Assembly (NCBI RefSeq): GCF_000384295.1
Contig: NZ_KB913037.1
Coordinates: 412,762-476,761 of the forward strand
Reading direction: 5' to 3'
Origin: Amycolatopsis balhimycina FH 1894
Lineage (GTDB): Bacteria > Actinomycetota > Actinomycetes > Mycobacteriales > Pseudonocardiaceae
DNA: 64,000 nt
The notes beneath the pieces were generated by a model. The model saw only the letters and a list, made by a program, of their open reading frames with translations. It was not told the origin of the DNA and ran no database searches. Every line of letters begins with the position of its first letter. Positions within the stretch are counted from its first letter, which is position 1. The position numbers were made by a program, and so were the translations under genes. Below, piece after piece: positions 1 through 20,477 of this stretch.

Positions 1-852
1 GGTGAACCCCGGCCGCCGGGCCCCGTCGTTGCCGACCGCGCTGCCGCGCAGCACCGCGAGCACCGGGTCGCGGTCGGCGAGCGCGTCCGCCAGCCGGCGC
101 AGCGCGACGACGCCGACGCCGGACCCGACCGCGGTGCCCGACGAGCGGGCGTCGAACGCCCGGCAGTAGCCGTCGTCGGAGAGGATCCCGCCGGGCTCGA
201 ACCGGTAGCCCGCGGCGGGTTCGGCGAGCCCGGCACCCCCGGCCAGCGCGAGGTCGCACTCACCGGACAGCAGGCTGAGCACGGCGTAGTGCACCGCGGT
301 CAGCGAAGACGAGCAGGCCGTCTGCACGCCCACCGACGGGCCGCGCAGGCCGAGCTTGTGCGCCACCCGGGCCGCGCCGAAGTCGGCCATCCCGCCGAGC
401 TGCAGCGACAGGTGGTCGAGCCCGGCCGTTCCGCCCCGCCGCGCCCGCGCGGCCTGCAACGCGGCGACGTACCCGCTCGGGCTCATCCCGGCGAAGACGC
501 CGACCCGTTGGTCGCTTTCACCGCCGGGCGGGTACCCGGCCTGTTCCAGCGCCTCCCAGCAGGTCTCGAGGAACAACCGCTGCTGCGGGTCGATCAGCTC
601 CGCTTCGGCCGGGGAGACGCCGAAGAACTCCGCCGCGAACAGGCCGGGCCCGGCCAGGGTCGCGATCCGGCGCACGTAGTCAGCATCGCCGAACACCTCG
701 GGTCCGACACCCGCGACGCGCAGTTCGTCGTCGGTCAGTTCGCGCATGCCGAGTACCCCGGCTTCGAGGCCGGCCCAGAACTGTGCGGGGGTGTCCGCGC
801 CGGGAAACCGGCAGCCGATGCCCACGACGGCGATCGCCGTGTCCGCGCTCAC
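1..852 (-). CDS. Type I polyketide synthase, N-terminal ketosynthase (partial, runs off left edge)
   Basis: The first 284 residues of a modular PKS are visible; the gene continues beyond base 1. It opens directly with a ketosynthase: the N-terminal strand VVGIGCRFPGA, then the active-site motif TACSSS with the catalytic Cys near residue 180. The His-containing HGT and NVGH motifs would lie outside the window. KS domains catalyse decarboxylative Claisen condensation, so this protein should extend a peptidyl chain handed over by the upstream NRPS. The GTG start is chosen because it overlaps the stop of that NRPS by 4 bp (GTGA), which implies translational coupling. There is no N-terminal docking or loading domain. 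Whether AT, KR or ACP follow cannot be seen. Confidence 0.9.
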   Translation of the reverse strand, partial: MSADTAIAVVGIGCRFPGADTPAQFWAGLEAGVLGMRELTDDELRVAGVGPEVFGDADYVRRIATLAGPGLFAAEFFGVSPAEAELIDPQQRLFLETCWEALEQAGYPPGGESDQRVGVFAGMSPSGYVAALQAARARRGGTAGLDHLSLQLGGMADFGAARVAHKLGLRGPSVGVQTACSSSLTAVHYAVLSLLSGECDLALAGGAGLAEPAAGYRFEPGGILSDDGYCRAFDARSSGTAVGSGVGVVALRRLADALADRDPVLAVLRGSAVGNDGARRPGFT

Positions 853-3569
853 CGGCGCGACGTCCCCGGCGCCGGGCGGCGGGCGGCGCCGAGCAGCCGC
901 TGCCGGTTCTGCTCGCGCGGCGCGGGTGCGGGCCGGTCGTCCCCGGCGAGCAGCCGCGCCTGGCTCGACACGGTGTTGCAGCGGAACAGGTCGGCGACGG
1001 TGAGTTCGCGCGCGGTCAGCGGTGCCAGCCGGTCGAGCAGCATGATGAGCAGCAGCGAGGTGCCGCCCGCGTCGAAGAAGCTGGTCTCGGTGTCCACGTC
1101 GGCGCGGGCGAGCACGTCGGCCCAGGCTTTGCGGACGACGTCGACAAGGTCCGATGTGGACGGTTCGGGCACGGTCGCCTCCAGGGATCGCACGAGCTCC
1201 AGCGCCAGCCTGCGCAGATCGGCCAGCAGCGCGGTGACAGTGGCGCGGTCGAACAGGCCGGTCACGTAGTCGGCGTAGAGCTCCAGCTCGTCCGGGTGCT
1301 CGATCCCGACGAGCGCGAGCTCGTACTTCACGTGCGCCGCGTCCCGGATCTCGACCCGGCCGTGCACACCGTCGCCGAGGACGGGTGCGGCCAGGGGCGC
1401 GTCGAGCACGCTGACCATCACCGGCGTCACCGGCGGCCTGCTGAGATCGCGCCCGGGCTCCAGCGCCGCGGCGACGGCGTCGAAGGGGACGTCCGCGTGG
1501 GCGAACGCCGTGGTGGCGGCACGGCGGACCCGGCCGAGCAGCTCGCCCCAGCCAGGCTCGCCGCGCAGATCGGCCCGCACGAGCAGAGTGCCGGCGAACA
1601 TGCCGACCGCGCTCGCCCGGCCCGGGTCGTCCCGGCCCGCCCAGGGGAAGGCGAACAGGAAGTCGGCCTGGTCACCGCGCTCGGCCAGCGCGGCCGCGAG
1701 CAACACGACGAGCACCATGAACGTCGAGCAGCCGTGCGCGGCGGCGACCACCCGCAGCCGCGAGGTCAGCTCCGGGCCCAGCCCGAGGACGGCGGTGGCT
1801 CCCTCGGTGCGCTGTTCGGCCGTGCGCGGCCGGTCCCGCGGCAGGTCGACGTCGAGCGGAGCATCTTCCAGTGACGCGAGCACCTCGGCCAGCCGGTCCT
1901 TCCCCGCCTCCACCGGCCCCGCGGCATCCGCCGGGTGGACCGGCTCGGGCAGATGCGGCGGCCTGCCCTGCCCGGCCGCGCGGTAGGTCTCGCCGATCTC
2001 GTCCGCGAGCTGCCGCAGGGACCAGCCGTCGAGCACGACGTGCGACGCGCTCAGCGCGACCGTGGTCGCCCCGGTTCCGGAGGTGATCACCGCCGCTCGC
2101 GCGGGCGGCCCGTCGGCCAGGTCGAAGGGTTGCCAGAGCACCTCGTCGAGGTAGTCGTCGAGCTCCGCCCGCGACCGGCCCCGATTGTCCACAAGCGACA
2201 CTTCGGGAGCCGGGCCGTCGGTGCGGTAGACCAGTTCCCGGCGCGCGTGGTCGAGCCGGAACACCGAACGCAGCGCCGGGTGCCTGCCGAGCACGAACCG
2301 GATCGACGCGGCGAGCCGGGCGGCGTCCACCACCCCGGTGTACTCCAGCACGAACGTGACGAGGTAGGCCTGACGCAGCCGGGGAAGCCGGTCGAGGAAC
2401 CAGAGCCGCTGCTGGGCGGGCAACGCGGGGTACCACCCGTCGTCGGCGGTGACGGGCGAGCGCGACGGCGGTGCGGCCGCGGTGTCCAGGAGCGCGCCGA
2501 GGCCCGTGACGGTGGGCTCGGCGAGGAAGTCCCGCAACGCCACTTCGCCGTTCCAGCGCCGGGCCGCGGCGGCGACCATTCCGACCGCGAGCAGGGAATG
2601 CCCGCCGAGGCGGAAGAAGTCGGCGTCCGGTTCGCGCAGCGCGGCCCGCTGCGCCTCGCCGTACAGCCCGGCCGCGGACAGGGTCTCCGCGAACAGCTCC
2701 GCCGCCCGCCGCCGTCCCGTCTCGGACGCGCTCACCGGCGACGGCGGCGGAGCCGGCTCGGCCGGTGCGGACAGCTTCAGTTCCCCGTCGCGGCCCCGCA
2801 CGGCGCGATCCCCGGTCCGGCACCGCCGGAGGTCGCCGGGCACGCCCGGACCGAAGACCCAAAGGTCCCCTTCGACCCCGTCGGGGAGTTCTTCGTCCCC
2901 GGCGCCGAGCACGTCCAGGCGGGTGTTCGGCACCGGCCGCAGCGATCCGTCGACGATCTCGGCCGCGAATCCGGGGCATCCGGCGGCGCGGTAGAAAGAC
3001 CGGCCCTGGCGCTCGGCGACGTCGGTGAGCACCAGCCGGGCACCGGAGCACAGACAGGCGAACGCCTCGACCACCGCCGTCGCACCAGAAGCAACCAGCC
3101 GGGCACCGGGGCCCAGCTCGTGCAGCCACCCCGTCGTGAGCGCCGCGTACAGGAGGTTTCCCTGTTCCCACACGACGGTCTCGCCGCCGGGCGGGATCAG
3201 GACCACCGCCGGGGCGCGCTCGTCGACCGGGACCGCGGGCACCGGCGGGCCCGGCTCCACATCGGCCTCGCGGAGCAGTTCGATCCCGGCGGGCTCGGGC
3301 CGGTCCGGGTCGAGTGGCGCGAACGCGGCACCGGCCCGCAGCACCCCCAGCCAGGCCGCGACCTGACGCGGCCCCGGCGACGCGACGACGCCGACGACCG
3401 CACCGGGCCCGACACCGGCCGCCCGCAGCCTGCCGGCGGTTCCCCAGGCGAGCGCGTCGAGTTCCGCGTTCGTGGCGGTCGAGCCGCCGCACTCGACGGC
3501 GACGGCCGCGGGGTCGGCCAGCGCGAGGCTCGCCGCGGCCATTTCGGGGACCGTCGTGGGTTCACGCAC
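849..3569 (-). CDS. NRPS, degenerate adenylation domain - PCP - condensation - PCP
   Basis: About 906 residues. Residues 1-300 resemble an adenylation domain at both ends (an opening like A1/A2, and RTGD as in A7), but the domain is short and the ATP-binding signature TSGSTG, the YGPTE motif and the C-terminal GK lysine are absent, so it is probably inactive. A carrier domain follows (LGGHSL, Ser near 324), then a condensation domain from about 379 (QQRLW) with SHVVLDGWS near 511, which keeps the second, catalytic His. A second carrier lies near 800-875 (GGTSL, Ser near 834). It probably receives an acyl or aminoacyl group in trans, condenses it and passes it to the KS protein encoded next. 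The GTG start at 3569 overlaps the isomerase gene by 8 bp. A longer reading from GTG 3737 would overlap that gene deeply and is disfavoured. Confidence 0.85.
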   Translation of the reverse strand: MREPTTVPEMAAASLALADPAAVAVECGGSTATNAELDALAWGTAGRLRAAGVGPGAVVGVVASPGPRQVAAWLGVLRAGAAFAPLDPDRPEPAGIELLREADVEPGPPVPAVPVDERAPAVVLIPPGGETVVWEQGNLLYAALTTGWLHELGPGARLVASGATAVVEAFACLCSGARLVLTDVAERQGRSFYRAAGCPGFAAEIVDGSLRPVPNTRLDVLGAGDEELPDGVEGDLWVFGPGVPGDLRRCRTGDRAVRGRDGELKLSAPAEPAPPPSPVSASETGRRRAAELFAETLSAAGLYGEAQRAALREPDADFFRLGGHSLLAVGMVAAAARRWNGEVALRDFLAEPTVTGLGALLDTAAAPPSRSPVTADDGWYPALPAQQRLWFLDRLPRLRQAYLVTFVLEYTGVVDAARLAASIRFVLGRHPALRSVFRLDHARRELVYRTDGPAPEVSLVDNRGRSRAELDDYLDEVLWQPFDLADGPPARAAVITSGTGATTVALSASHVVLDGWSLRQLADEIGETYRAAGQGRPPHLPEPVHPADAAGPVEAGKDRLAEVLASLEDAPLDVDLPRDRPRTAEQRTEGATAVLGLGPELTSRLRVVAAAHGCSTFMVLVVLLAAALAERGDQADFLFAFPWAGRDDPGRASAVGMFAGTLLVRADLRGEPGWGELLGRVRRAATTAFAHADVPFDAVAAALEPGRDLSRPPVTPVMVSVLDAPLAAPVLGDGVHGRVEIRDAAHVKYELALVGIEHPDELELYADYVTGLFDRATVTALLADLRRLALELVRSLEATVPEPSTSDLVDVVRKAWADVLARADVDTETSFFDAGGTSLLLIMLLDRLAPLTARELTVADLFRCNTVSSQARLLAGDDRPAPAPREQNRQRLLGAARRPAPGTSRR

Positions 3570-4392
3570 GCGGCACCACCGCCTCCGCGAACAACGACCG
3601 CGTGCCGCGGATCGCCCGCTCGACCTTCCGGAAGGCGTTCTCCGGATCCGCGAACGGGCCGACTTCGACCGCGATCGCCCGCGCCCGCGCGGCCCGCAGC
3701 TGCGAGACGAAGGCGGGCAGGTCCGCGACGCCGTCACCGGGGGCGAGATGCTCGTGGTAGCGGCCGTTCGAATCGGAGAAGTCGACGCTGTTGACCCGGC
3801 CGCTCAGCCGCGCCACCTCGGCGGCGGGCACCCCGCGGACCACCATGTGCGAGGTGTCGATGTTGGCCAGCACGGCCTCCGAATCCACCTCGGTGATCAG
3901 CCTGGTCAGCGACGCGATGTCGTTGACCAGGGAGGTGTCGAGGGGTTCGAGCTCGACGCTGACCTCGACGCCGCGAGGGGCGGCGTAGTCGCCGATCCGG
4001 CGCACGGCGTCGACGAGCAGCTGCCACTGGGTCGCCGTCGGCCACATCGTGCGCCAGATCCACTCGCCGAGCAGGATCTTGAGCACCGGCGCGCCCAGTT
4101 CGCGTGCCAGGTCGACGTGCCGCTCGGTGCGGACGATGTTCCATTCCCTGGCCACCTCGCGCGGGTCGTTGAGGCCGAAGGCGTGGCACTGCGCCATGGT
4201 CACCGGCACCCCGGCGGACTCGACGTCGGTGCGCAGCGTGTGCAGCACGTCCGGCGTCATCTCCATGGCTTCCTCGGTGAGCGCGATCCAGTCCGCGCCC
4301 GCCTCCGCCGCGGCCCGCCAGGCATCGCGGCCCAGCAGCGACGAACCCATGAACGCCTGGTCGACGAGGATGCCGAGGGAGGAATCGATCAC
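3562..4392 (-). CDS. Sugar-phosphate isomerase/epimerase-like TIM-barrel protein in the NRPS operon
   Basis: 276 residues, the usual size for the xylose isomerase-like / AP endonuclease 2 superfamily. Candidate divalent-metal ligands are placed as in that family: Glu in SVELEP (147/149), Asp179 and His182 in NIDTSH, His in YHEHL (213/215) and Glu243 in AVEVG. Known members include hydroxypyruvate isomerase, inosose dehydratase and 3-dehydroshikimate dehydratase; the substrate here cannot be read from sequence. The gene sits between two NRPS genes with 4-bp and 8-bp overlaps, so it is co-translated with them and probably makes or remodels a building block (inference). No signal peptide; cytoplasmic. 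Confidence 0.85.
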   Translation of the reverse strand: MIDSSLGILVDQAFMGSSLLGRDAWRAAAEAGADWIALTEEAMEMTPDVLHTLRTDVESAGVPVTMAQCHAFGLNDPREVAREWNIVRTERHVDLARELGAPVLKILLGEWIWRTMWPTATQWQLLVDAVRRIGDYAAPRGVEVSVELEPLDTSLVNDIASLTRLITEVDSEAVLANIDTSHMVVRGVPAAEVARLSGRVNSVDFSDSNGRYHEHLAPGDGVADLPAFVSQLRAARARAIAVEVGPFADPENAFRKVERAIRGTRSLFAEAVVPRA

Positions 4393-7259
4393 GGTGCGGG
4401 TTCCTTCCGGGAGGACGCCAAGCGCGCCAGGGCGTGCGAGGACAAGTCGAGCTGGGCTTGCCGGGTGACCGGTCGCCGGGAGTGGGGTAGTTCGGCGACC
4501 GGGACGGCGGGGTTCCGGCAGGCCGCGCCGAGCAGGACGACGAACCCTTCGGCGAGGGCGGCGACCAGGTCACGGGGGTAGCGGGCGGTGTCGTATTCGA
4601 TGTGCCCGGTCAGGCCGCCGGGCCCGGCTTCGAGGAACATCGAGAAGTCGAACTTCGCCCACCCGGTGTCCGGCGAATCCGCCGAGCGCCACGGCGCGGG
4701 CGGCGAGGCGCCGGTTTGCTGGAAGCTGAAGACCACCTGGACGAGTGGGCTGCGCCGGTCGGCGACCGCGGTCACCAGCCGGTCCAGGGGCAGCGATTCG
4801 GCCTCGAGCGCGGTCAGCACCTCGTCGGCGGTGGCCTCGCACAGCCGGGTGAACGACTCGGCGTCGGCCACCTCGCAGCGGAGCGGGACGGTGTTGGCGA
4901 ACAGTCCCACCAGTTCCTCCAGCTCCGGCCACGGCCGGTTGGCCACCCCGGTACCCAGCAGGAAGGCCGTCCGGCCCGACCAGCGGCGGACCACCACGGT
5001 GAACGCGGCGAGCAGGACGGCGAACGACGTGATCCGCAGCCGGCGCGCCAGCTCGCGGACGTCCGTCCACAAGGGACCGTCCAGGTCGAGCGGGTACCGG
5101 GTGCCCGCTCGCGGCCCGGCCACCGGCGGCCGGGATCCCGGCCGCCGGTCGAGCGACAGGTCGGCGACCAGGTCACGGAGCCGGGCGGCGTACTCGGCGA
5201 CGAGGCTCGCCGTCTCCGGGCCGGCGGCCTCGCTCCGCTCCCGCGCGGCGTAGCCGGAGAACCCGATCTCCGTCGGCGGCAGGACGGGGACCAGCCCGGC
5301 CGCGGCGGCCCGGTAGGCGACGGCCAGGTCGGCCAGGAGCACGTGGGCGGACCAGCCGTCCACCGCGATGTGGTGCGTGCGCAGCAGAACCAGGTCCCCG
5401 CCGGGCAGTCCGGGCCAGACCGTGCACCGCAGCGGCGGATCCACCGAGAGATCGATCGGGGCGGCCGCGCACCGCTCGGCCTCGCCGTCGGCACCGTCAC
5501 CCACCTCGACGTCCACGCCGGCGGGCTCGTGGATCACCTGCACCGGGCCGCCGGCCTCGAGCCGGTAAGTCGTGCGCAGCGGCTCGTGCGGGGCCGCCAC
5601 CGCGGTGAGCGCTGCGGACAACGCGGCCCGGTCCACCGCGCCACGCCAGCGAAGCAGGATGGGCGTCGCATAGGCCGCCGTCCCCGGCTCGGCGGCCTCG
5701 ACGAACCAGAGCCGTTCCTGGCCGGTCGACAGCGGGGCGGTCCGCTCGCCGGCGGACAGCCGTGCCCGGTCGAGCTTCCCGGTCGAGGTCAGCGGGAGCG
5801 CGGGCAGCCGGACCCACCGGGCGGGCACCATGTATCCGGGCAGCCGGTCCCGCAGGGCCGTGGACAAGTCCGCGTCCGCGGCGGCGCCCGCGACGTAACC
5901 GGTGAGATGGGCGAGCGGGCCGTCACCGGACTTCTCCACCGCCACCGCGGACACCAGCCCGGTGGCCAGCACCGCGGCCTCGACCTCGGCGAGCTCGACC
6001 CGGAACCCGCGCAGCTTCACCTGGCGATCGACGCGGCCGAGGAACTCGATCGCCCCGTCGCCGCGGCGCCGGACCCGGTCGCCGGTGCGGTACCAGGGTC
6101 CTTCGCCGTCCGCTCCGGGCACGGCCGCACCCGGGAAGAAGCGCGCGGCGGTCTCGTCCGGCCGCCCGAGGTAGCCCAGCGCGACCCCGGGGCCGCCGAT
6201 CCACAGCTCGCCTTCGGCCGTGGCCGCGTGGTCGTCGTCGAGCACGCACAGCCAGGTGTTCTGGAGCGGGAACCCGATCGGGACGCGTCCGTGGCCGTCG
6301 ACCGTCTCCGGCGTGCACTCGAAGAAGGCGGCGAAGGTCGTGGCCTCGGTCGGGCCGTAGGCGTTGACGAGCCGGCCGGGCGGATCCGCGTCGAGCACCT
6401 GCCGCACGACGGCCGGGTCCATCGTGTCGCCGCCGACCAGCAGGGTGGCGACCGAGGCGAAAGCCGTGGGCTCGGCCCGGGCGATCAGGTCGAACAGCGC
6501 GGAGGTCAGGAACAGGGCGCTGATCCGGTACCGGGCCAGCAAACCACCCCACGCGCCGAGGTCGATCTGCCCGGCGGCGGGCGGCACGACCACGGTCGCG
6601 CCGGCGGCGAGCGTGCTCCAGACCTCGAAGGTCAGCGCGTCGAACGCCGGGTTCGCCAGCTGGGCGACCCGGTCACCGGGACCCAGCGGGCAATAGGCGG
6701 CCGAGCTCACCAGCCGCAGCACCGCGCGGTGGGGCACCACGACCCCTTTGGGCGCGCCGGTGGAACCGGAGGTGTAGGCCACGTAAAGCGGCGACTCGGG
6801 ATCGAAAGGCGCCGGTTCGGGCCCATGGCTCTCCCCGCCGCGCACGGCGGTGACGTCCAGCGCCGGGATGTCCGGCAACGGCGGCCAACCCGGCCCCCGG
6901 ACGACTACGGCGCAGTCCGCTTCGGCCAGTACGCCCGCAGTGCGCCCCGGTGGGGCGAGCGCGTCGAGCGGCACATAGGCCGCGCCGAGCCGCGCGACGG
7001 CGAGCAGGGTGACGACCAGTGCGGCCGAGCGGTCCACCGCCACCGCGACGCGGTCACCCGCCTCGACACCGCGGGCCGCCAAGGCCGCGGCCAGGTCCGA
7101 AGAACGCGCCCAAAGCTGCTGGTAGGTGAGGTCTCCATCGGCGGCCGAGACGGCGAGCGTGTCCGGCTCGGCCGAGACACGGCCGGCGACGAGGTGGTGG
7201 ATCCCCCGGTCCGCCGGGAGCGCGACGACAGCGCCGTGCTGCGTCACCGAAGTGTTCAC
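4389..7259 (-). CDS. NRPS, adenylation - condensation with no carrier domain between
   Basis: 956 residues. The adenylation domain (about 18-500) is complete: TSGSTGAPKG near 163, FDALTFEVW near 206, YGPTE, YRTGD and the terminal STGKLDR lysine motif. Reading the pocket by eye gives D-A-F-F-L-G-A-T-F-K, close to published codes for Ile/Val-type aliphatic residues (inference). The chain then goes straight into a condensation domain (STGQERLW near 508, THHIAVDGWS near 629) without an LGGxS carrier, unlike the standard A-PCP-C order. The activated residue must therefore be loaded onto a carrier elsewhere; a free PCP is encoded at 11456. First gene of the leftward operon. GTG start with a GGGGGA-type ribosome-binding site. 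Confidence 0.9.
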   Translation of the reverse strand: MNTSVTQHGAVVALPADRGIHHLVAGRVSAEPDTLAVSAADGDLTYQQLWARSSDLAAALAARGVEAGDRVAVAVDRSAALVVTLLAVARLGAAYVPLDALAPPGRTAGVLAEADCAVVVRGPGWPPLPDIPALDVTAVRGGESHGPEPAPFDPESPLYVAYTSGSTGAPKGVVVPHRAVLRLVSSAAYCPLGPGDRVAQLANPAFDALTFEVWSTLAAGATVVVPPAAGQIDLGAWGGLLARYRISALFLTSALFDLIARAEPTAFASVATLLVGGDTMDPAVVRQVLDADPPGRLVNAYGPTEATTFAAFFECTPETVDGHGRVPIGFPLQNTWLCVLDDDHAATAEGELWIGGPGVALGYLGRPDETAARFFPGAAVPGADGEGPWYRTGDRVRRRGDGAIEFLGRVDRQVKLRGFRVELAEVEAAVLATGLVSAVAVEKSGDGPLAHLTGYVAGAAADADLSTALRDRLPGYMVPARWVRLPALPLTSTGKLDRARLSAGERTAPLSTGQERLWFVEAAEPGTAAYATPILLRWRGAVDRAALSAALTAVAAPHEPLRTTYRLEAGGPVQVIHEPAGVDVEVGDGADGEAERCAAAPIDLSVDPPLRCTVWPGLPGGDLVLLRTHHIAVDGWSAHVLLADLAVAYRAAAAGLVPVLPPTEIGFSGYAARERSEAAGPETASLVAEYAARLRDLVADLSLDRRPGSRPPVAGPRAGTRYPLDLDGPLWTDVRELARRLRITSFAVLLAAFTVVVRRWSGRTAFLLGTGVANRPWPELEELVGLFANTVPLRCEVADAESFTRLCEATADEVLTALEAESLPLDRLVTAVADRRSPLVQVVFSFQQTGASPPAPWRSADSPDTGWAKFDFSMFLEAGPGGLTGHIEYDTARYPRDLVAALAEGFVVLLGAACRNPAVPVAELPHSRRPVTRQAQLDLSSHALARLASSRKEPAP

Positions 7260-7714: not shown

Positions 7715-9499
7715 ATGGAATTCGGGCTGTTGGGTCCGATCGCGATCTGGCACGAGGGACGCCAGCTGGCGCTGGGCAGCGCGCAGCGCCGCTGCGTGCT
7801 GGCCATGCTGCTGCTGCAGCCCGGCCAGGTGGTGCCCATGCAACGGCTGCGCGAGGCGCTGTGGCCGGGCAGGCACGTGCCGGGAACCGCCAGGAACGCC
7901 ATCCAGGGCTGTGTGTCACAGCTGCGGAGCACTCTGGCCGCGGATCCCGCGATCCGGCTCGTCCACCGCCAGCCCGGCTACCTGCTCGACGTCGATCCGC
8001 AGCAGATCGACCTGTGCCGCTTCCGGGACCTGGTGGCCGCCGCGAAGGAGACCGCCGACGACCAGGCCCAGGCCGAGCTGCTCGGCCGGGCGCTCAGCCA
8101 CTGGCGCGGCGAACCGCTGGCCGGCGTCGAGGACTCGACCATCACCGCGGCCGTCCGCTCCGCGCTCACCGACGAGCGGCTCGACGCCGAGGAGCAGTGG
8201 GTCGAGGCGCGGCTGCGGCTGGGGCACCACCGCGAGGTCACCGGCGAGCTGACCGTGCTGGTGGCCGCGCACCCGCTCCGGGAACGCCTGCGCGGGCTGC
8301 ACATGCTCGCGTTGTTCCAGTCCGGCCGGCACGCCGAAGCACTGCGTGCCTTCGCCGATGCCCGGTCGGTGCTCGTGGACGAGCTGGGCATCGAGCCCGG
8401 CCCGGAGCTGCAGCGCCTGCAGCAGCGCATCCTCGCCGCCGACCGGACGCTGCTGAAGTCCCCGCAGCCACGGGAACCGCTCGCGCCGGTGCCACGGCAG
8501 CTGCCCGCGCCACCGGGTCTGCTGGCCGGCCGGGACGAGGAGCTCGCCGCACTGCGCGCGGCCGTCGCCGGCCCGCGGGGCACGGGTGTGGTCACCGTCG
8601 AAGGCGCCGCGGGCACCGGGAAGACCGCTCTTTCCGTCCATTTCGGACACGAGAGCGCCGACGCGTTCCCCGACGGCCAGCTGCACCTCGACCTGCACGG
8701 GCACACCGGCCCCGGTCCCCTGCCGGGCGCCGAGGCGCTCGCCCGGCTGCTGCGGGGGCTCGGCCGCCCGCCCGCCCCCGGAGCCACCAGCGAACAGGAG
8801 CTCGGCGCCGCCTACCGGTCCGCGCTCGTCGGCAAGCGGATGCTGATCCTGCTGGACGACGCCCGCGACGCCGACCAGGTCCTCCCGCTGCTGCCGGGCG
8901 CGGCGGGGTGCCTCGTGCTGGTCACCGGCCGGGCCGGGCTCGCCGCGGTGGACGCCGGCCTCCGGCTGCGTCCCGCCCCGCTGGCGGAGCCCGCGGCACT
9001 GGCGATACTGGCCCACTGGGCGGGCGCGGACCGGGTAGCGGCCGAGCCTGCCGCGGCCGCCGCCATCGTGGCCGCGTGCACCGGGCTGCCGCTGGCGCTG
9101 CGGATCGCCGGCGCCCGCCTGGCCGCCCGGCCCGGCCTCCCGATCTCGGCGCTCACCAGCAGGCTCACCGACCCCCACCGCCGGCTCGACGAGCTGCGGG
9201 CCGGTTCGCACTCGGTCCGCGCCGCGTTCTCCGCGAGCCTGCGGGTCCTCGACGCCGGTGACGAGGCGGACCGGCTCGCCGCGCGGGCGTTCCGCCACGC
9301 CGGCGACGGCACGGTGCCCGGGATGTCCGCGGCGGACACCCACGCCGCGGCCGAGCGGCTCGTCGACCACCACCTGCTGGAGCCGGCGGGCCCCGGCCGG
9401 TACCGGATGCCGGAGCTGCTCCGGCTCTACGCCGCCGAACTCGGCGGCGCCGTACCCCTAGCTGAGCCCCCACCCGAATCCCCGGAGGGACCCCGATGA
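7715..9499 (+). CDS. SARP-family pathway regulator with BTAD and NB-ARC ATPase domains
   Basis: 594 residues. The N-terminal 90 residues form the OmpR-like winged helix of SARPs (FGLLGPIAIWHEG opening, QLRSTLA recognition region). A bacterial transcriptional activation domain of TPR-like helices follows to about 245. From about 265 there is an NB-ARC-type ATPase with Walker A GAAGTGKT near 298 and a LILLDDA Walker B. The length is intermediate between DnrI-type short SARPs and AfsR. It lies first in the rightward gene set and overlaps the next gene by 4 bp, so it is a likely cluster-situated activator, acting in the cytoplasm on the divergent promoter. The ATG start has a purine-rich GGGGG ribosome-binding site. 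Confidence 0.9.
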   Translation: MEFGLLGPIAIWHEGRQLALGSAQRRCVLAMLLLQPGQVVPMQRLREALWPGRHVPGTARNAIQGCVSQLRSTLAADPAIRLVHRQPGYLLDVDPQQIDLCRFRDLVAAAKETADDQAQAELLGRALSHWRGEPLAGVEDSTITAAVRSALTDERLDAEEQWVEARLRLGHHREVTGELTVLVAAHPLRERLRGLHMLALFQSGRHAEALRAFADARSVLVDELGIEPGPELQRLQQRILAADRTLLKSPQPREPLAPVPRQLPAPPGLLAGRDEELAALRAAVAGPRGTGVVTVEGAAGTGKTALSVHFGHESADAFPDGQLHLDLHGHTGPGPLPGAEALARLLRGLGRPPAPGATSEQELGAAYRSALVGKRMLILLDDARDADQVLPLLPGAAGCLVLVTGRAGLAAVDAGLRLRPAPLAEPAALAILAHWAGADRVAAEPAAAAAIVAACTGLPLALRIAGARLAARPGLPISALTSRLTDPHRRLDELRAGSHSVRAAFSASLRVLDAGDEADRLAARAFRHAGDGTVPGMSAADTHAAAERLVDHHLLEPAGPGRYRMPELLRLYAAELGGAVPLAEPPPESPEGPR

Positions 9500-11412: not shown

Positions 11413-11455
11413 CCCGGCCCGGCGCCGAACCGGTTCGGGCGAAAGGGAAACCCAG

Positions 11456-14700: not shown

Positions 14701-15035
14701 AGTTCCCGCTCACCCGCAACGGCAAGGTGGACCTCCGGGCGCTGTCCGCCGAAACGCTCCCGGCCGTGGCCACGACCACCGCCGAAGACGACGTCGCCGC
14801 GTTGGAGAAGATCATCGCGGACGCCTGGACCACGGTGCTCGGCACCGACGACTTCGACCACGACGAGGTGTTCTTCGACGTCGGCGGTGACTCGCTGCGG
14901 CTGGCCCTGGTCCGGCACCAGCTCCGGGAACGGTTGCCGGACCAGCCGCTGCCGCTGGTGGACCTGTACCGCTTCCCGACCGTCGAATCGCTGGCGCGGC
15001 ACCTGGCGGGCGCACCGCCGGGCACGAGCGCATGA
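11745..15035 (+). CDS. NRPS, PCP - condensation - adenylation (Val-like) - PCP
   Basis: 1096 residues. An N-terminal carrier (LGGSSLG, Ser near 36) is followed by a condensation domain with VHHVLADGWS near 217, then a complete adenylation domain (TSGSTGLPKG near 667, FDASTLELL, NGYGPTE, YRTGD, RNGKVDLR) and a C-terminal carrier (VGGDSLR, Ser near 1048). The pocket read by eye is D-A-L-W-L-G-G-T-F-K, close to the published valine code DAFWIGGTFK (inference). Having a carrier before the C domain means the upstream aminoacyl donor is held on the same chain and must be loaded in trans. The start at 11745 is chosen for its GGGAGG ribosome-binding site and the preceding overlap. No epimerase or methyltransferase insert. 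Confidence 0.92.
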   Translation: MTGLEDWLPLVGAVTGTRAAEVAARLGDTSFVALGGSSLGAIELLALGQRHLESSVDSARLIGPEPLGPVLSAATPYLAPPPPAGREPDRPLLPGQRVMLAAHLAGTDRPYHLMFSLETGDPLDEDRATAALAELVARHESLRTMFVADGTAQCRRVLPPTERPRILRQHLPSVHSVQAGHELYARASDALLRPFERPPVVFVLGRAGRGSVLTMLVHHVLADGWSIGLLWRQFGELYRGEPAAPGRSPDQVADRQAELTSSGKLAEITARAADRLAGAPTVVSLPSDSPRPPESDGRGARLVFTLPEPLATATGALAARCGVTTTAVLMTAWALTVARRTGLADLLLGLPVAGRFGAGTAGVVGLLTRVVPVRCRIDDGDSAEACVRGVSAAIAAATGDADVPFEHLVAALGEDPDPARNPLAQIGFAAHDQLVPEWIGPDWRVHEGHCGGAVFDALLYVQAWSGGPRLALEYATSVLSPADAGDLAESFEAGLAELTAEPGQPLVRARTISAGQRARLDRLGAGPSVDSDGDLWHVFERTVAAAPEAVAVSDTHAGVTLTYAQLHAFASAQARQLAAAGVEAGDRVLIDLPRSASEAVGVLATLCLGASYVAIDPAATREWRTHVLATAEPKARIGPETAIDLTGPVPAGPVLPAVTGKTAYVAFTSGSTGLPKGVVVTHRGVLRLAADPDLFVPAAATRMLRLAPLAFDASTLELLVPLLKGDAVEVYPPGEPAPAALAGFLHDRPVTHLWLTSGLFRIVAEHRPDAFRGVRQVLTGGGVVSPPHVRRVLDRCPGLRVTNGYGPTENTTFTTTHTVDGAHQVGPDLPIGRPVAGTSVVVLDTSGGLVPPGGIGELSTTGAGLADGYLSDPARTGEVFTGAAATGDRTYRTGDLARWGTDGTLRFHGRHDRQVKIAGHRVELADVERRIASRDGVLDALVFLSDEDRLCAAVRTGGASLAAIRQAVEAELPAYARPQRWLGVTEFPLTRNGKVDLRALSAETLPAVATTTAEDDVAALEKIIADAWTTVLGTDDFDHDEVFFDVGGDSLRLALVRHQLRERLPDQPLPLVDLYRFPTVESLARHLAGAPPGTSA

Positions 15036-17902
15036 GCGGGCCGGACATCGCGGTGATCGGGTTCGCCTGCCGGTTCCCCGGCGCGGAGGACGTCTGGCGG
15101 TACTGGTCGAACATCGAGGCCGGCCGCGTCTCGATCACCACCCTGACCCGGGACGAGCTGCTCCGCACCGGCGTCCCGGAGTCCGAAGTGGACGATCAGT
15201 GGTACGTGCCGTCCCGTGGCCGGATCGACGGTGCCGGATATTTCGACGCGGATTTCTTCGGCATCACGCCGAAGGACGCGGCACTGATGGACCCGCAGCA
15301 CCGCCTGCTGCTGCAGACCGCGTGGGAGGCACTGGAAACGGCCGGGCTGACGACGAACCGCCCGTTCGGCCGGGTCGGCGTGTTCGCCGGCTCCGGGTTC
15401 GGCCACTACCTCGTCGAGAGCGTGCTGAAGGACCCGGACGTCGCCGGCTCGCACGGCCTGCTCGCGGCGGTGCTCGGCAACGAGAAGGACCACCTGGCCG
15501 CGAAGATCGCCTACCGGCTCGACCTGGGTGGACCGGCCGTGACCGTCCAGACCGCGTGCTCGACCTCGCTGGTCGCGGTGCACCTGGCCCGGCAGAGCCT
15601 GCTCGCCGGTGACGCGGACGTCGTGCTCGCCGGCGGGGTGTCCGTGCCGTACCCGCAGGACACCGGCTACCTGTACGAGCCGGGCGGGGTCCTGTCGCCG
15701 GACGGCGGCTGCCGCCCGTTCGACGCGACCGCGGCCGGCACCGTGCCGGGCGGCGGCGTCGGCATGGTGGTGCTGAAGCGCCTCGACGACGCGGTCCGCG
15801 ACGGCGACCTGGTGTACGCGGTGGTCAAGGGGTCGGCGATCAACAACGACGGCGGCGCCAAGGCCGGGTACACCGCGCCCGGGGTACGCGGCCAGCTCGA
15901 CGTGCTCAGCCGGGCCTACGCGAACGCCGCGGTGGCACCGGAAACGATCGGCTACATCGAGGCGCACGGCACCGCGACCGAGGTCGGCGACGCCATCGAG
16001 CTCGCCGCGCTGACGGAGGTGTTCGGCGGCCGGGACCGGCCCTGTTCGCTCGGCTCGGTCAAGGCCAACGTCGGGCACCTCGACGCCGCGGCGGGCGTCG
16101 CCGGGTTCATCAAGGCGGTGCTGGCGCTGTACTTCGAGCGGATCCCGCCGATGGCGGGCCTGACCCGGCCACGCGCCGAGATCGCCGACGGGACCACGTT
16201 CACCCTGGACCGCCGGGCCCGCAAGTGGACGGACTCCCGGACCCGCCGGGCCGCCGTCAGCGCCTTCGGTCTCGGCGGGACCAACGCGCACGTCGTCCTG
16301 GAGGAAGCACCGGCTCGGGCCGGCCTCGCGCCGCGGCCGCGGCAGGCGACCGCGGTCCTGCCCGTCTCCGCGCGCACCGAGGCCGAGCTCGAGGCGGCGA
16401 AGGCCAGGCTCGCGGCGCACTTGCGCACGGCCAACGACGTGTCGGTCCACGACGTCGCCCTGACGCTCCAGTCGCATCGCCGCCCGTTCCCGTACCGGCA
16501 CGCCGTCGCGGCCGAAGACGTGCCGTCCGCCGTCGCGCGGTTGGCGGATCCGCCCGGCGGACCGGCCGTGAAGCGCCCGAGCCTCGTGTTCCTGTTTCCG
16601 GGACAGGGTTCGGAATACGCCGGGATGTCGGCGGAGCCCTACGCCGGCCAGCCGTCGTTCCGGTCCGATGTGGACAGGTGCGCCGAGGCGGCCGCCGACA
16701 TCCTCGGGTTCGATCTCCGCGAAGTCCTCCTGGATCCGGGCGCGCCGGCCGAGCGCGTCCACCGCACGGACGTCGCGCAGCCCGCGCTGCTCGTGCACGA
16801 ATACGCGCTCGGGCGCCTGCTGGTGTCCTGGGGTGTCCGGCCCGCCACCCTGATCGGCCATTCCGCCGGCGAGTACGCCGCCGCGTGCCTGGCCGGCGAG
16901 CTGGACATCGAGGACGCGCTGCACCTCGTGGCCCTGCGTGGATCGCTCATGCAGGCCGCCCCGCCGGGCCGCATGCTCGCCGCGCTCACCGGCGAGGCGG
17001 TCGCCCGGCACCAGGCCGGCGAGATCGGCGGGCTCGACCTCGCCGCGGTCAACGGCACCGACAACGTCGTCCTGTCGGGCACCGAGCAGGCGATCGACGA
17101 GCTGCGGACGCGTTTCGACCGCCTCGGCGTGCGGCACCGGATGCTCCCCGCCCGCCGGGCGTTCCATTCCCGGATGATGGCCGGCGCCGCCGACGGGCTC
17201 CGGCGTGCTCCGGCCGCGGCTCGTGGCCGGAGCAGGCGGATCGACGTCGTCAGCGGACTCGACGGCACTCTGCTCCCCCGCGGCGCGCGCCGTGACGCCG
17301 GTTACTGGGCCGAGCAGGTCCTCGCACCGGTGCGGTTCCTCGAGGCCTTGCGGACCGGCCTGGCGACGGCGAACCCGGTCCTGGTCGAGGTCGGGCCCGG
17401 CAAGGCGCTCACCGCGGCCGCGCGGGCGCTTCCCGAAGCGCGCGACGCCGCCAAGATCGCCGTGCAACCCGGCCGCTCGAGCCCGGTCGTGGCCGCCGCC
17501 GGCGCGCTGTGGGCGGCCGGGGTGAACGTTCGCTGGGACGACGTCCGGCAGAGCGTGGCCGGCCGGATACCGCTGCCGACGTACCCGTTCGCCCGCAACG
17601 AGTACTGGCTGCGGAAACCGGCACCCGAGCCGGCTCCGCCACCCTCGCCGGCCGGACCGGTTCCGGAGTCCGAGCCCGTTCTGGCGCAGGTCATCGAGGT
17701 GTGGCTGGACCTGCTCGGGACCGCCGGAGTGCGGCCCGGGTCGAACTTCTTCGACCTCGGCGGCGAGTCGCTGCTGTTCGTCCGGATGGTGGCGCGGCTC
17801 CAGCGGCGGTTCGGAGTCCCGCTCGACGTGGACGCGCTGGCGGCCACCCCGACCCCCGCGGCGATCGCCGCGGTCATCACCGCCGCACCGGAACGGGACT
17901 GA
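15032..17902 (+). CDS. Type I PKS module KS-AT-ACP without reductive domains
   Basis: 956 residues. The KS domain (1-425) has TACSTS with Cys near 176, EAHGTAT near 312 and KANVGH near 343, the full Cys-His-His set. The AT domain has GQGSEYAG, the nucleophile elbow GHSAGEY near 611 and AFHSRMM; AFH resembles the HAFH signature of malonyl-specific ATs rather than YASH (inference: malonyl-CoA). The C-terminal ACP has LGGESL (Ser near 912). With no KR, DH or ER, the product keeps a beta-keto group. The start overlaps the NRPS stop by 4 bp (ATGA), so the chain probably passes from the Val-type NRPS module into this two-carbon extension. Confidence 0.93.
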   Translation: MSGPDIAVIGFACRFPGAEDVWRYWSNIEAGRVSITTLTRDELLRTGVPESEVDDQWYVPSRGRIDGAGYFDADFFGITPKDAALMDPQHRLLLQTAWEALETAGLTTNRPFGRVGVFAGSGFGHYLVESVLKDPDVAGSHGLLAAVLGNEKDHLAAKIAYRLDLGGPAVTVQTACSTSLVAVHLARQSLLAGDADVVLAGGVSVPYPQDTGYLYEPGGVLSPDGGCRPFDATAAGTVPGGGVGMVVLKRLDDAVRDGDLVYAVVKGSAINNDGGAKAGYTAPGVRGQLDVLSRAYANAAVAPETIGYIEAHGTATEVGDAIELAALTEVFGGRDRPCSLGSVKANVGHLDAAAGVAGFIKAVLALYFERIPPMAGLTRPRAEIADGTTFTLDRRARKWTDSRTRRAAVSAFGLGGTNAHVVLEEAPARAGLAPRPRQATAVLPVSARTEAELEAAKARLAAHLRTANDVSVHDVALTLQSHRRPFPYRHAVAAEDVPSAVARLADPPGGPAVKRPSLVFLFPGQGSEYAGMSAEPYAGQPSFRSDVDRCAEAAADILGFDLREVLLDPGAPAERVHRTDVAQPALLVHEYALGRLLVSWGVRPATLIGHSAGEYAAACLAGELDIEDALHLVALRGSLMQAAPPGRMLAALTGEAVARHQAGEIGGLDLAAVNGTDNVVLSGTEQAIDELRTRFDRLGVRHRMLPARRAFHSRMMAGAADGLRRAPAAARGRSRRIDVVSGLDGTLLPRGARRDAGYWAEQVLAPVRFLEALRTGLATANPVLVEVGPGKALTAAARALPEARDAAKIAVQPGRSSPVVAAAGALWAAGVNVRWDDVRQSVAGRIPLPTYPFARNEYWLRKPAPEPAPPPSPAGPVPESEPVLAQVIEVWLDLLGTAGVRPGSNFFDLGGESLLFVRMVARLQRRFGVPLDVDALAATPTPAAIAAVITAAPERD

Positions 17903-17903
17903 C

Positions 17904-20477
17904 ATGGCACCGACCGTGGAGCAGCTGACCGGCCACAGTGGATTGCACAGTGGATCGCCGGCCGTCGTCGTCACGGACTTCCAGCCGCTGTCGGCGCAGC
18001 GGTCGCTGGCCGCGGAGCTGAGCGCGGCCGGCGGGGACCTGACGATCCTGCGGATCGACGCGGTCCGCGACCTGGCGGGCGGCTACTCCTACCGCGGCCT
18101 GGACGAGCTCGCCGAAACCTACGCCGGACTGCTGGCGGAGGCGGAGGTCGGCTGTGTCGTGGGCTACTGCAGTGCCTCCGGCCTCGCCGAACGGATCGCC
18201 GCGCGGCTCGGCGGGCTGCCGGTCGTGCTCGTCAAGCCCACCCGGCCGACGCTCGAGCAAGCTGTCGACGACTTCGGCGGCTTCGCGGCGAAGCTGGGTT
18301 CGTCCGCCGACGGCATGGCGTTCGACCGCGCTCGGGGCGGGGCCGAAACGCATGCCGCGATGAACCGTGGGCTCGCGGCCGCCCTGGCCGGCTGGGCGCT
18401 GGCCGAGGACATCGACGCCGACGAGGTGGAGCTGCTGGAGACCGAGCTGCTCGCCCGCTTCGACGGCTGGCTCGGCTTCCTGCTGGCCGCCGCGCAGCAC
18501 CCCGATCCGCTGCCCCGGCACCACGTCGTCCCCGGCGTCGAGCTGGACGACGCCATGGTGGCGGCGACCGTGGCCGCGATCGAACGGATCCACGCCGAGC
18601 GGGCCCTCGGCGTGGACGGCGACACCCTGCTCGGCGCCGCGTGCGCGGTGCTGGTCCACCGCGTCACGGGCCGGGAACGGGTCGTGACCGGGCACGGCGA
18701 GCGCCGGAGCGCCGTGCGGCTCGGCCCGGACACGACGTTCCACGAGGTGCTCGACCGGCTCCGCTCGCCGGGCGGGGACGAGGACGCCTGCGACGTGGTC
18801 GTGCGGGACGGCGTCCTCACCGCCGACCGGACCGGGGCGGTGACGGACGAACGGCTCGCCACCGTGCTGCCCGCCCTCATCCGGCACCCGGACCGGGCGA
18901 TCCGCCGGGCCGGGCTCGTCGGCGCGCGGGAACGGGAGCGGCTGCTCGCCTTCAACCCGGCGAGGACACCCTTTCCGGATCGCCCGGTGCACGAAGTGAT
19001 CCGTGACCAGGCCCGGCGGTCACCCGAGCGGGTCGCCGTCCGGCTCGGCCCGGCCGAGCTGACCTACCGCGAGCTCCTCGACCGGGCCGGGGAACTCGCG
19101 GACCGGCTGCGGGAGGAGGGCGTCGAACCGGGCCGCGTGGTCGCGCTCTGTGCCGAGCGCAGCCCGGCCATGGTCGTCGCGATCCTCGGCATCCTGCTGG
19201 CCGGGGCGGCCTACCTCCCGCTGGACGGCACCCATCCCCCGGCCCGGCTGACCGCGATGGTGGACGCCGCCGGGGCCGCGGCGGTGCTGGCCGACGACCA
19301 CCACCGGGCCGCGGTCGCCGGGCTCGGCCCCCCTCCGTACACAGTGGACGGACGACCGGCCGGCCCGGGCCCGGTCAGGCCGGCCGCCGCCCCGCCGTCC
19401 CCCGGCAGCGCGTACGTCATGTTCACCTCCGGGTCGACCGGCACTCCGAAAGGTGTCGAGATGACCCACCGGAGCCTCGCGAACCGGCTGGCCTGGATGC
19501 AGGACACCTACCGGCTGACCGAACACGACGTCGTGCTCCAGAAGACGCCCTACACGTTCGACGTCTCGGTCTGGGAATTCTTGTGGCCGCTGATGGCCGG
19601 TGCCCGGCTGGTGCTCGCCGAACCCGGCACGCAGGCCGATCCCGAGGCGATCGTCGAGGTGATCCGGCGCGAACGGGTGACCACCGTGCACTTCGTGCCG
19701 TCGATGCTGGCCCTGTTCGCCGCCGAACCGGGGGTCGCCGCCTGCCGGTCACTGCGGACGGTGATCTGCAGCGGCGAAGTCCTGCCGCCCAAGACGGTCA
19801 ACAAGCTGACGGGCGTCCTCCCGGTGGCGGTGCACAACCTGTACGGCCCCACCGAAGCGGCGATCGACGTCACCGCGTGGCCCTGCCGCCACCCCGAACC
19901 GGAGACCGGCGTGCCGATCGGACGGCCCATCGCGAACGTCGCGGTCTACCTGCTCGACGAGGAACGGCGCCTGGCCCCGCTCGGCGGCCGTGGCGAGCTG
20001 TACCTCGGCGGCGAGTGCCTCGCCCGCGGCTACGCCGGCCGCCCCGACCTCACCGCGGACCGCTTCGTCGAGATCACCGTGGCCGGCGCGCCGGAACGCG
20101 TCTACCGCACGGGCGATCTCGGCTGGTGGACCCCGGACGGCTGCCTGCACTACGCCGGCCGCACCGACGGCCAGGTGAAGATCGGCGGCAGGCGGGTGGA
20201 GCTCGGCGAGATCGAAGCCGTGCTGCGCGGCCATCCCCGCGTCGGCAACGCGGCGGTCATCCTCCGCGACGGCGACATCCTCGTCGGCTACGTCGTCCCC
20301 GAAGGCGAGCCGCCGGAGGAGACCGAACTGCGCGACCACCTGGCCCGGCACCTTCCGGGCTACATGGTGCCCGCCCGGTTCGTGGTGATCCCGCAGGTGC
20401 CGACGACGGCGAACGGCAAGCTCGACCGAGCCGCCCTGCCGGAGCCGGGCCGCCGGCGGCGAGGGCGAACGTCTTGA
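17904..20477 (+). CDS. NRPS-like protein: unusual N-terminal domain, half condensation domain, Ser-type adenylation domain; no carrier
   Basis: 857 residues. Residues 1-200 look alpha/beta-hydrolase-like, with an elbow VGYCSASG (Cys near 89) where thioesterases usually have Ser; assignment uncertain. Residues 210-370 resemble only the C-terminal half of a condensation domain (GAACAVLVHRVTGRERVVTG), with no HHxxxDG. The adenylation domain is complete: TSGSTGTPKG near 508, FDVSVWEF, NLYGPTE, YRTGD, ANGKLDR. The pocket reads D-V-W-H-I-S-L-I-D-K, one change from the published serine code DVWHLSLIDK. The protein ends 12 residues after the GKLDR lysine; its TGA lies inside a palindromic repeat interrupted by an insertion sequence, so a carrier domain may have been lost. 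Starts 1 bp after the PKS stop. Confidence 0.85.
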   Translation: MAPTVEQLTGHSGLHSGSPAVVVTDFQPLSAQRSLAAELSAAGGDLTILRIDAVRDLAGGYSYRGLDELAETYAGLLAEAEVGCVVGYCSASGLAERIAARLGGLPVVLVKPTRPTLEQAVDDFGGFAAKLGSSADGMAFDRARGGAETHAAMNRGLAAALAGWALAEDIDADEVELLETELLARFDGWLGFLLAAAQHPDPLPRHHVVPGVELDDAMVAATVAAIERIHAERALGVDGDTLLGAACAVLVHRVTGRERVVTGHGERRSAVRLGPDTTFHEVLDRLRSPGGDEDACDVVVRDGVLTADRTGAVTDERLATVLPALIRHPDRAIRRAGLVGARERERLLAFNPARTPFPDRPVHEVIRDQARRSPERVAVRLGPAELTYRELLDRAGELADRLREEGVEPGRVVALCAERSPAMVVAILGILLAGAAYLPLDGTHPPARLTAMVDAAGAAAVLADDHHRAAVAGLGPPPYTVDGRPAGPGPVRPAAAPPSPGSAYVMFTSGSTGTPKGVEMTHRSLANRLAWMQDTYRLTEHDVVLQKTPYTFDVSVWEFLWPLMAGARLVLAEPGTQADPEAIVEVIRRERVTTVHFVPSMLALFAAEPGVAACRSLRTVICSGEVLPPKTVNKLTGVLPVAVHNLYGPTEAAIDVTAWPCRHPEPETGVPIGRPIANVAVYLLDEERRLAPLGGRGELYLGGECLARGYAGRPDLTADRFVEITVAGAPERVYRTGDLGWWTPDGCLHYAGRTDGQVKIGGRRVELGEIEAVLRGHPRVGNAAVILRDGDILVGYVVPEGEPPEETELRDHLARHLPGYMVPARFVVIPQVPTTANGKLDRAALPEPGRRRRGRTS

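What the first reader, a model, noticed from the sequence alone, without database searches (positions are those of the whole stretch)
1..20477. Hybrid NRPS-PKS cluster with an in-operon TIM-barrel isomerase and a RiPP-type B12 radical SAM enzyme
The gene set A-C / isomerase / A*-PCP-C-PCP / KS... and, divergently, SARP / B12-rSAM / PCP / PCP-C-A-PCP / KS-AT-ACP / X-A(Ser) does not match any cluster I know. By-eye pocket codes suggest an aliphatic, a valine-like and a serine residue plus at least one malonyl extension, with C-methylation possible. Tight overlaps within each arm argue for one pathway. Product prediction is inference; the cluster also continues past base 1.
Basis: partly seen in the sequence, partly recalled or inferred. 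Interest (0 to 1): 0.78.

Follow-up and report, generated by a model that had tools for sequence, protein, structure and literature searches.

The report
Hybrid peptide-polyketide cluster with repurposed methylase
A soil actinomycete of the genus Amycolatopsis carries an uncharacterised antibiotic-type gene cluster, shared with two other strains, in which a methylating enzyme normally used on ribosomally made peptides has been recruited to an assembly-line pathway; the combination is unusual but has a recent experimental precedent.

Summary
The unseen part encodes a KS-CP-thioester reductase terminus without AT, FkbH/I/J/K-type hydroxymalonyl-ACP genes, a KAS III-like enzyme with displaced catalytic residues, an MFS transporter and a solo A domain. 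The set recurs in Amycolatopsis vastitatis H5 (about 87-95% identity) and Kutzneria sp. CA-103260 (56-78%, synthases on one strand, FkbH missing), so both arms are one pathway. The core (KS-CP-TR, KAS III-like, solo A) recurs in 13 of 17 fetched relatives, 9 of them with FkbHIJK-type genes; the TIM barrel was seen only in the three clusters among genomes searched for it. The radical SAM enzyme passes the RiPP C-methyltransferase model TIGR03975 but lies in its own clade: 8 of 9 members have NRPS condensation domains within 10 kb, against 0 of 22 sampled outside. It probably C-methylates a Val/Ile-type residue; DscE was shown in 2025 to methylate Val of nonribosomal discodermin. A new variant of a known kind; MIBiG could not be checked, and product and substrates are inferred.

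The parts
1..852 (-). 5' part of the KS-CP-TR gene (P0001, 1122 aa; whole gene G000:C1:410245-413613). KS with TACSSS, EAHGSGT and NIGH motifs, no AT found by Pfam, carrier protein, terminal thioester reductase
   Evidence: (TIGR01746 215.3 bits, only just above its cut-off of 213.35)
849..3569 (-). P0005: degenerate adenylation remnant (A*) - PCP - C - PCP, about 906 aa (ORF opens at 3737)
3562..4392 (-). P0006: xylose-isomerase-like TIM barrel (AP_endonuc_2), 276 aa; close homologues seen only in the three conserved clusters among the genomes searched
   Evidence: (115.1 bits)
4389..7259 (-). P0007: A (aliphatic-type pocket) - C with no PCP between, 956 aa
7715..9499 (+). P0008: SARP-type regulator (Trans_reg_C, BTAD, NB-ARC); in one ORF with the rSAM in Kutzneria
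9496..11412 (+). P0009: cobalamin-type radical SAM C-methyltransferase, TIGR03975, in an NRPS-associated clade
11456..11758 (+). P0010: free-standing carrier protein, 100 aa
11724..15035 (+). P0011: PCP - C - A (Val-like pocket) - PCP, 1103 aa; the N-terminal PCP is seen by its LGGSSL motif, not by Pfam
   Evidence: TIGR01733 312.3 bits, just under its cut-off of 317.4
15032..17902 (+). P0012: KS - AT - ACP, 956 aa; no KR/DH/ER found by Pfam; AT reads GHSAG and RAFH (not the full HAFH), taken as malonyl type by a recalled rule
17904..20477 (+). P0013: X (about 345 aa, unassigned, weak C-domain trace) - A (Ser-like pocket), no PCP, 857 aa; X and A lie in separate ORFs in Kutzneria

Best explanation
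A roughly 30-kb, 17-gene hybrid NRPS-PKS cluster with its own SARP-type regulator that builds a short peptide-ketide from aliphatic (Val/Ile-like), Ser-like and trans-loaded residues plus one malonyl unit. It finishes by reductive release (thioester reductase) after a last extension on an AT-less KS-CP module. FkbH/I/J/K homologues supply hydroxymalonyl-ACP; the KAS III-like protein, whose FabH His and Asn positions are changed, probably moves that unit (or another carrier-bound acyl) onto the AT-less module. The radical SAM enzyme belongs to a branch of a RiPP C-methyltransferase family that is associated with NRPS genes, and probably methylates an unactivated carbon of a Val/Ile-type residue, giving a tert-leucine-like side chain. 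Shown here: gene content, conservation, co-occurrence, clade and active-site changes. Inferred: regulation, substrates, order of assembly, product. The TIM barrel is taken as a metal-dependent isomerase/epimerase/dehydratase of unknown substrate.
For: Same gene set in A. vastitatis and, without FkbH, in Kutzneria. FkbH 295.1 bits against cut-off 146.65; ACAD closest to the FkbI crystal entry 1r2j, E 7.5e-137; 3HCDH; a small ACP of about 83 aa in the roughly 250-bp gap between them. TR domain. KAS III-like changes in 23 of 23 aligned sequences: Cys kept, the PHQAN His changed, the GN Asn replaced by His. rSAM clade: 8 rows grouped with 100% SH-aLRT; condensation domains within 10 kb in 8 of 9 members against 0 of 22 others (G574, the ninth, was placed by 52% identity, not by the tree). 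DscE precedent. Val-derived C-methylated tert-butyl together with hydroxymalonyl genes in butyrolactol A.
Against: No chemistry was observed. FkbH is missing from the Kutzneria cluster (its best homologue there, 60%, is unlinked), so hydroxymalonyl may not be universal. Four of 17 relatives keep KS-CP-TR, KAS III-like and solo A without the linked close FkbH/I/K set, so the KAS III-like enzyme need not handle hydroxymalonyl. One clade member (G432) has only an NRPS remnant. The SH motif of the clade also occurs in a 36% homologue (G640) with no NRPS hit in the 12 kb seen. The TR match is only 2 bits above its cut-off. The solo A pocket (DPFFLAIIT) matches no specificity I can name, and its TIGR01733 score (307.7) is below the cut-off of 317.4.
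Confidence: 0.55

Rival explanations
1. The extender is aminomalonyl-ACP, made from serine: P0013 (Ser-like A domain without a PCP) charges a discrete carrier, and the 3HCDH and FkbI-like dehydrogenase oxidise seryl to aminomalonyl, as in the ZmaJ/H/I/G route of zwittermicin. FkbH is dispensable or makes a second unit.
For: The Kutzneria cluster lacks FkbH but keeps the Ser-like A domain, ACP, ACAD and 3HCDH; the zwittermicin route is described in PMC6395733 (passages).
Against: Two of three clusters and 13 of 17 relatives carry FkbH with P0002- and P0003-like genes. The ACAD is closest to FkbI among solved structures. P0013 carries a long X region unlike a plain loading enzyme.
Confidence: 0.25
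2. The radical SAM enzyme methylates something other than a Val/Ile residue, for example the ketide or hydroxymalonyl-derived carbons, or acts late on the finished product.
For: DscE acts on the finished peptide discodermin D in vitro. Pocket codes are read by eye and the substrate of the enzyme was not tested. The kutzneride-like G290 cluster carries two different B12-type rSAM genes, so its roles cannot be assigned.
Against: Two of four intact A domains read as aliphatic/Val-like; the tert-butyl cases named in the passages (bottromycin, polytheonamide, butyrolactol, discodermin) involve Val.
Confidence: 0.3
3. Two neighbouring pathways: a RiPP-type or other SARP/rSAM unit lies by chance beside an NRPS-PKS cluster.
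For: TIGR03975 is a RiPP model, and the three other TIGR03975-type loci of this genome that I inspected each have a SARP-like gene nearby (about 1.5 kb in two, about 4 kb in the third), so SARP next to rSAM is not special to NRPS.
Against: The two arms are conserved together in two genera, with SARP and rSAM in one ORF in Kutzneria. The rSAM clade is NRPS-linked in 8 of 9 cases.
Confidence: 0.05

Closest known systems
Discodermin (dsc) NRPS cluster with DscE, 'Entotheonella monilis' (PMC12858407, section 10 read, other passages seen)
   Same: A RiPP-like cobalamin radical SAM C-methyltransferase works in a nonribosomal pathway; shown in vitro to add a methyl at V5 of discodermin D, giving discodermin B, in peptides with t-leucine residues
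   Different: 14-module NRPS; no FkbHIJK, KAS III or TR mentioned in the passages seen; whether DscE is TIGR03975 or in this clade was not tested here
Kutzneride-like cluster (G290; kutznerides were isolated from Kutzneria sp. 744)
   Same: Carries a TIGR03975 enzyme about 52% identical to P0009 beside NRPS genes; kutznerides contain a tert-butyl hydroxy acid (recalled, not seen)
   Different: Trp halogenases and a piperazate synthase homologue; no KS-CP-TR core hit in the 40 kb read; the 'kutzneride' label for G290 is my inference
Hydroxymalonyl/methoxymalonyl-ACP sub-cluster (FkbH/I/J/K; Zma enzymes; module M112949 of PMC6395733, passages seen)
   Same: FkbH domain, FkbI-like ACAD, small ACP and 3HCDH adjacent; no methyltransferase domain found by Pfam in the products scanned, hence hydroxymalonyl rather than methoxymalonyl
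   Different: Linked to a KAS III-like protein and an AT-less KS-CP-TR module, instead of an AT domain that takes the extender from its ACP as ZmaA-AT does (start of the abstract of PMC4207774)
Butyrolactol A cluster (PMC5355916, passages seen)
   Same: Hydroxymalonyl-ACP genes, and a product tert-butyl derived from C-methylated valine
   Different: A PKS pathway as described; the authors found no C-methyltransferase gene near the PKS genes
KAS III-like proteins such as ChlB3 (7eqi, E 7.9e-07, residues 217-312 of P0004)
   Same: KAS III relatives working with carrier proteins in natural-product pathways, ChlB3 as an acyltransferase (recalled); active-site Cys kept in P0004
   Different: P0004 has His at the FabH Asn position and none at the usual place; function untested

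Membership tests
TIGR03975 RiPP-maturation radical SAM C-methyltransferase | Score above the curated NCBIfam cut-off over the full length | tested here: met
   494.8 bits against 281.85, profile 1-606 of 606
TIGR03975 RiPP-maturation radical SAM C-methyltransferase | CX7CX2C cluster motif | tested here: met
   CWWGQRSHCTFC
TIGR03975 RiPP-maturation radical SAM C-methyltransferase | Cobalamin-binding domain | tested here: inconclusive
   PF02310 E 0.00052, 20.3 bits, below its cut-off of 32.1
TIGR03975 RiPP-maturation radical SAM C-methyltransferase | Works on a ribosomal precursor peptide encoded nearby | not tested
   No precursor was looked for; the clade sits with NRPS condensation domains in 8 of 9 members
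Hydroxymalonyl-ACP (FkbHIJK without O-MT) sub-cluster | FkbH domain, FkbI-like ACAD, FkbK-like 3HCDH and a discrete ACP side by side | tested here: met
   the Kutzneria cluster lacks FkbH
Hydroxymalonyl-ACP (FkbHIJK without O-MT) sub-cluster | No O-methyltransferase gene in the cluster | tested here: met
   No methyltransferase match at E <= 0.001 in the Pfam tables for 16 of the 17 products; the small ACP was not scanned
KAS III (FabH) decarboxylating condensing enzyme | Cys-His-Asn catalytic triad | tested here: not met
   Cys kept; the FabH His is Gln (Pro in two rows) and the FabH Asn is His in all 23 aligned rows (register)
Thioester-reductase-terminated NRPS/PKS | C-terminal TR domain with Rossmann glycines and YxxxK | tested here: met
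   TIGR01746 215.3 bits against 213.35; TGATGYVG and YGASK
Any MIBiG cluster with the same gene order | Same gene order and domain content in a characterised cluster | not testable with these tools
   No MIBiG or antiSMASH here; in the listings of searches I saw no paper that describes it, but supplements and most subscription papers are outside them

The most novel reading that the evidence does not exclude
Actinobacteria evolved a dedicated branch of RiPP-type cobalamin radical SAM C-methyltransferases that works on carrier-bound or peptidyl residues of NRPS lines. In this cluster it is combined with a KAS III-like transacylase delivering hydroxymalonyl from its ACP to an AT-less KS-CP-TR terminus, yielding a tert-alkyl peptide ending in an alpha-hydroxy-beta-keto aldehyde (reductone-like) or alcohol head group, processed further by a cluster-specific TIM-barrel isomerase.
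Probability: 0.25. Interest if true: 0.7.

Novelty: new variant of a known kind. Interest (0 to 1): 0.5.

Why it matters
tert-Leucine occurs in NRPS/PKS products whose enzymes are unknown (PMC12858407, section 10, names plocabulin and hemiasterlin). A compact actinobacterial clade tied to NRPS genes gives testable enzymes and a search handle. The AT-less KS-CP-TR module with its KAS III-like partner is a recurring way to end a peptide-ketide in this family of bacteria for which I found no characterised case.

Tried and rejected
Rejected: that the N-terminal PCP of P0011 is the PCP missing between A and C of P0007. A small carrier-protein tree hinted at it, but direct scores of five relatives' A-linked PCPs put the P0012 and P0001 carriers closer; an earlier attempt had read the wrong frame. 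Rejected: a diagnostic SH motif for the NRPS clade; 9 of 9 members have it, but so does the 36% homologue G640 without NRPS in view. Rejected: two unrelated neighbouring clusters. Led nowhere: literature searches for the cluster; PDB sequence search with P0009, no hit at E <= 0.001; plasmid search with P0009, 57 records, each under 60% identity; the specificity of the solo A domain; the fold of X (structure job never accepted). The predicted model of P0006 is of low confidence (mean pLDDT 64.7) and was not compared with the PDB. A coordinate script for the small ACP found nothing because its limits were set wrongly; the ACP was read.
Full report
Place and extent. The window lies in a 10.86-Mb single-contig genome (G000:C1:412762-476761). 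Its genus is Amycolatopsis: the same-genus genome G045 and the named A. vastitatis H5 contig NZ_NMUL01000007.1 show the same match on a contig of the same length. Coding bias and overlapping genes, with conservation in two relatives, put the cluster at G000:C1:403279-433238, i.e. from about 9.5 kb before window base 1 to window base 20477. The window holds about two thirds of it. The exact ends are inferred.

Observation. Minus arm in the window: P0007 A-C, P0006 TIM barrel, P0005 A*-PCP-C-PCP, start of P0001. Plus arm: P0008 SARP, P0009 radical SAM, P0010 PCP, P0011 PCP-C-A-PCP, P0012 KS-AT-ACP, P0013 X-A. The A* keeps none of the motifs A3, A5, A7, A8, A10.

What lies beyond base 1 (minus strand, G000:C1). 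P0001 410245-413613, KS-CP-TR with no AT found. P0002 409382-410245, 3-hydroxyacyl-CoA dehydrogenase. A small ACP of about 83 aa in the roughly 250-bp gap before P0003 (its A. vastitatis counterpart is an 83-aa ORF). P0003 408030-409133, acyl-CoA dehydrogenase closest to the FkbI crystal entry 1r2j (E 7.5e-137). P0004 407068-408033, KAS III-like. FkbH about 405998-407065 (295.1 bits, cut-off 146.65). An MFS transporter ending at 404769. A stand-alone A domain 403279-404772 with motifs A3, A5, A7, A8 and A10. Pfam shows no methyltransferase domain in the products scanned.

One pathway, three genomes. In A. vastitatis H5 the same genes stand in the same arrangement; the 15 queries of the set are 86.8-95.0% identical. 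In Kutzneria sp. CA-103260 (handles G150 and G291 are the same 11,609,901-base genome) the 14 of those 15 that match are 56-78% identical: P0013 (split into two ORFs; its X part is 46.8-55.5% identical), P0012, P0011, P0010, solo A, MFS, P0004, P0003, ACP, P0002, P0001, P0005, P0006, P0007 on one strand, and divergently a single 1218-aa ORF holding SARP and radical SAM. FkbH is the one that is absent there; the best homologue in that genome, 60% identical, is unlinked and no other member of the query set matches within about 10 kb of it. The genome paper of that strain (read whole) counts 51 clusters and describes none; the passages seen of the Kutzneria comparison do not mention this one.

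A recurring core. P0004 homologues at E <= 1e-30 occur in 46 of 390 genomes of the family; 21 of these, own included, are at 60% identity or more. Of the 18 others than own, A. vastitatis and Kutzneria CA-103260, I fetched 17 (G051, in two pieces, was left out) plus three distant loci. In the 17, about 20 kb each, P0001 and solo A occur together in 13, and FkbH, P0003 and P0002 together in 13; 9 have all of these, four (L061, L064, L073, L074) have P0001, P0004 and solo A without the close FkbH/I/K set, and four (L069, L071, L075, L076) the reverse. An A domain best matching P0007 and followed by its own PCP was read in 5 of 9 relatives tried; P0007 lacks that PCP in all three clusters. The TIM barrel P0006 was found in 3 of 4 genomes (own, A. 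vastitatis, Kutzneria; not G007), in 1 of 394 class genomes at E <= 1e-40 (own only), and in 0 of 19 genomes with P0004 relatives at E <= 1e-20. The whole family was not searched with it.

The KAS III-like protein. In 23 of 23 aligned sequences (own, A. vastitatis, Kutzneria and all 20 fetched loci) the active-site Cys is kept, the residue at the FabH His is Gln (Pro in two rows), and the residue at the FabH Asn is His (register taken by eye from the HMMER alignments). The decarboxylating triad of FabH is therefore not met. With an AT-less KS beside it, acyl transfer from a discrete ACP is the reading I favour; it is inference.

The radical SAM enzyme. P0009 passes TIGR03975. Family-wide, 9 of 390 genomes match at E <= 1e-90: eight at about 52-100% identity and one (G294) at 37%. 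A tree of 29 sequences puts the eight in one group with 100% SH-aLRT and a long stem; the program warns of long branches, and only a quick search was made. Condensation-domain hits within 10 kb occur in 6 of the 7 other clade members examined (G432 has none) and in the own cluster. In 21 loci outside the clade there are none, though three have one A-type hit, one locus is only 7.2 kb and one 15 kb. Those 21 are a part: 20 of the 28 non-clade matches listed (17 fetched, three own) and G294. A class-wide sample (3 of 394 genomes at E <= 1e-90: own, G574, G640) then gave G574 at 52% identity, which also lies beside NRPS genes, and G640 at 36% with none in the 12 kb seen, nearly all on one side. 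Counting G574 with the clade by identity, the totals are 8 of 9 against 0 of 22. The clade reads S before the H of CWWGxxSHCTFC in 9 of 9 and the 21 others read H there, but G640 also has S, so the motif is not exclusive.

What it probably does. C-methylation of a Val residue by a cobalamin radical SAM enzyme in a nonribosomal pathway has been shown for DscE on discodermin D (PMC12858407, section 10 read); in a passage of that paper an NRPS with a radical SAM C-methyltransferase is called an unusual combination. Butyrolactol A joins hydroxymalonyl genes with a valine-derived, methionine-methylated tert-butyl group, and no C-methyltransferase gene was found near its PKS genes (PMC5355916, passages). 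A clade member (G290) lies in a cluster with two Trp halogenases and a piperazate synthase homologue, which I take to be kutzneride-like; that kutznerides contain a tert-butyl hydroxy acid is recalled, not seen (the passages do not say so). With two aliphatic-type A domains here, a Val/Ile-derived residue is the likeliest substrate.

Working model (inferred). An aliphatic residue and a Val-like residue are joined, extended with malonyl on P0012, carried through P0007-P0005 with residues loaded in trans by the solo A and perhaps P0013, extended once more on P0001 with a hydroxymalonyl unit, and released by reduction. Which carrier each A domain charges, where methylation occurs and what the TIM barrel acts on are open. 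Its model shows an alternating strand-helix pattern but is of low confidence, and its nearest solved relatives by sequence are remote: a chain listed as 4-hydroxyphenylpyruvate dioxygenase (5hmq, matched in its N-terminal part; compare the weak QuiC dehydroshikimate-dehydratase match) and sugar epimerases.

Verdict. It is a new variant of known kinds: FkbHIJK extender supply, TR release, and rSAM C-methylation in NRPS. The most distinctive points are the NRPS-linked clade of a RiPP enzyme family and the KAS III-like/AT-less terminus. A MIBiG check and all chemistry remain undone.

Noticed in passing
window 20736-21788 (+): ORF with integrase core (rve) and HTH_21 domains, an IS3-type transposase by its domains (label recalled), just past the right end of the cluster.
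   Followed up: no
window 21897-22658 (-): A second, short SARP-type regulator (BTAD) beside the cluster; a homologous stretch (88.5% identity) lies beside the A. vastitatis cluster too.
   Followed up: partly
L078 (G000:C1:10389500-10409400) and G000:C1:10383325-10384266: The same genome has a second, distant KAS III-like gene (39%) with NRPS-PKS hits around it and an FkbH homologue (45%) some 15 kb away, suggesting a paralogous cluster.
   Followed up: no
L095, L096, L097 (own genome, three loci): Three further TIGR03975-type radical SAM genes (found by homology to P0009), none with NRPS hits within 10 kb; a SARP-like gene lies about 1.5 kb away in two and about 4 kb away in the third.
   Followed up: partly
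L069 and L071: FkbH, KAS III-like, ACAD, 3HCDH and an A-PCP gene side by side (a small ACP seen in L069), with no KS-CP-TR within about 10 kb: a possible minimal version of the sub-pathway.
   Followed up: no
L061 and L064: KS-CP-TR/KAS III-like/solo A loci in which another ACAD (by eye) and a distant 3HCDH (39-40%) stand about 5 to 8 kb away with unassigned genes, perhaps supplying a different extender.
   Followed up: no
L088 (G290): A kutzneride-like cluster carries two different radical SAM genes, one TIGR03975 and one nearest the KedN5 model (336.5 bits, below its cut-off of 700).
   Followed up: partly
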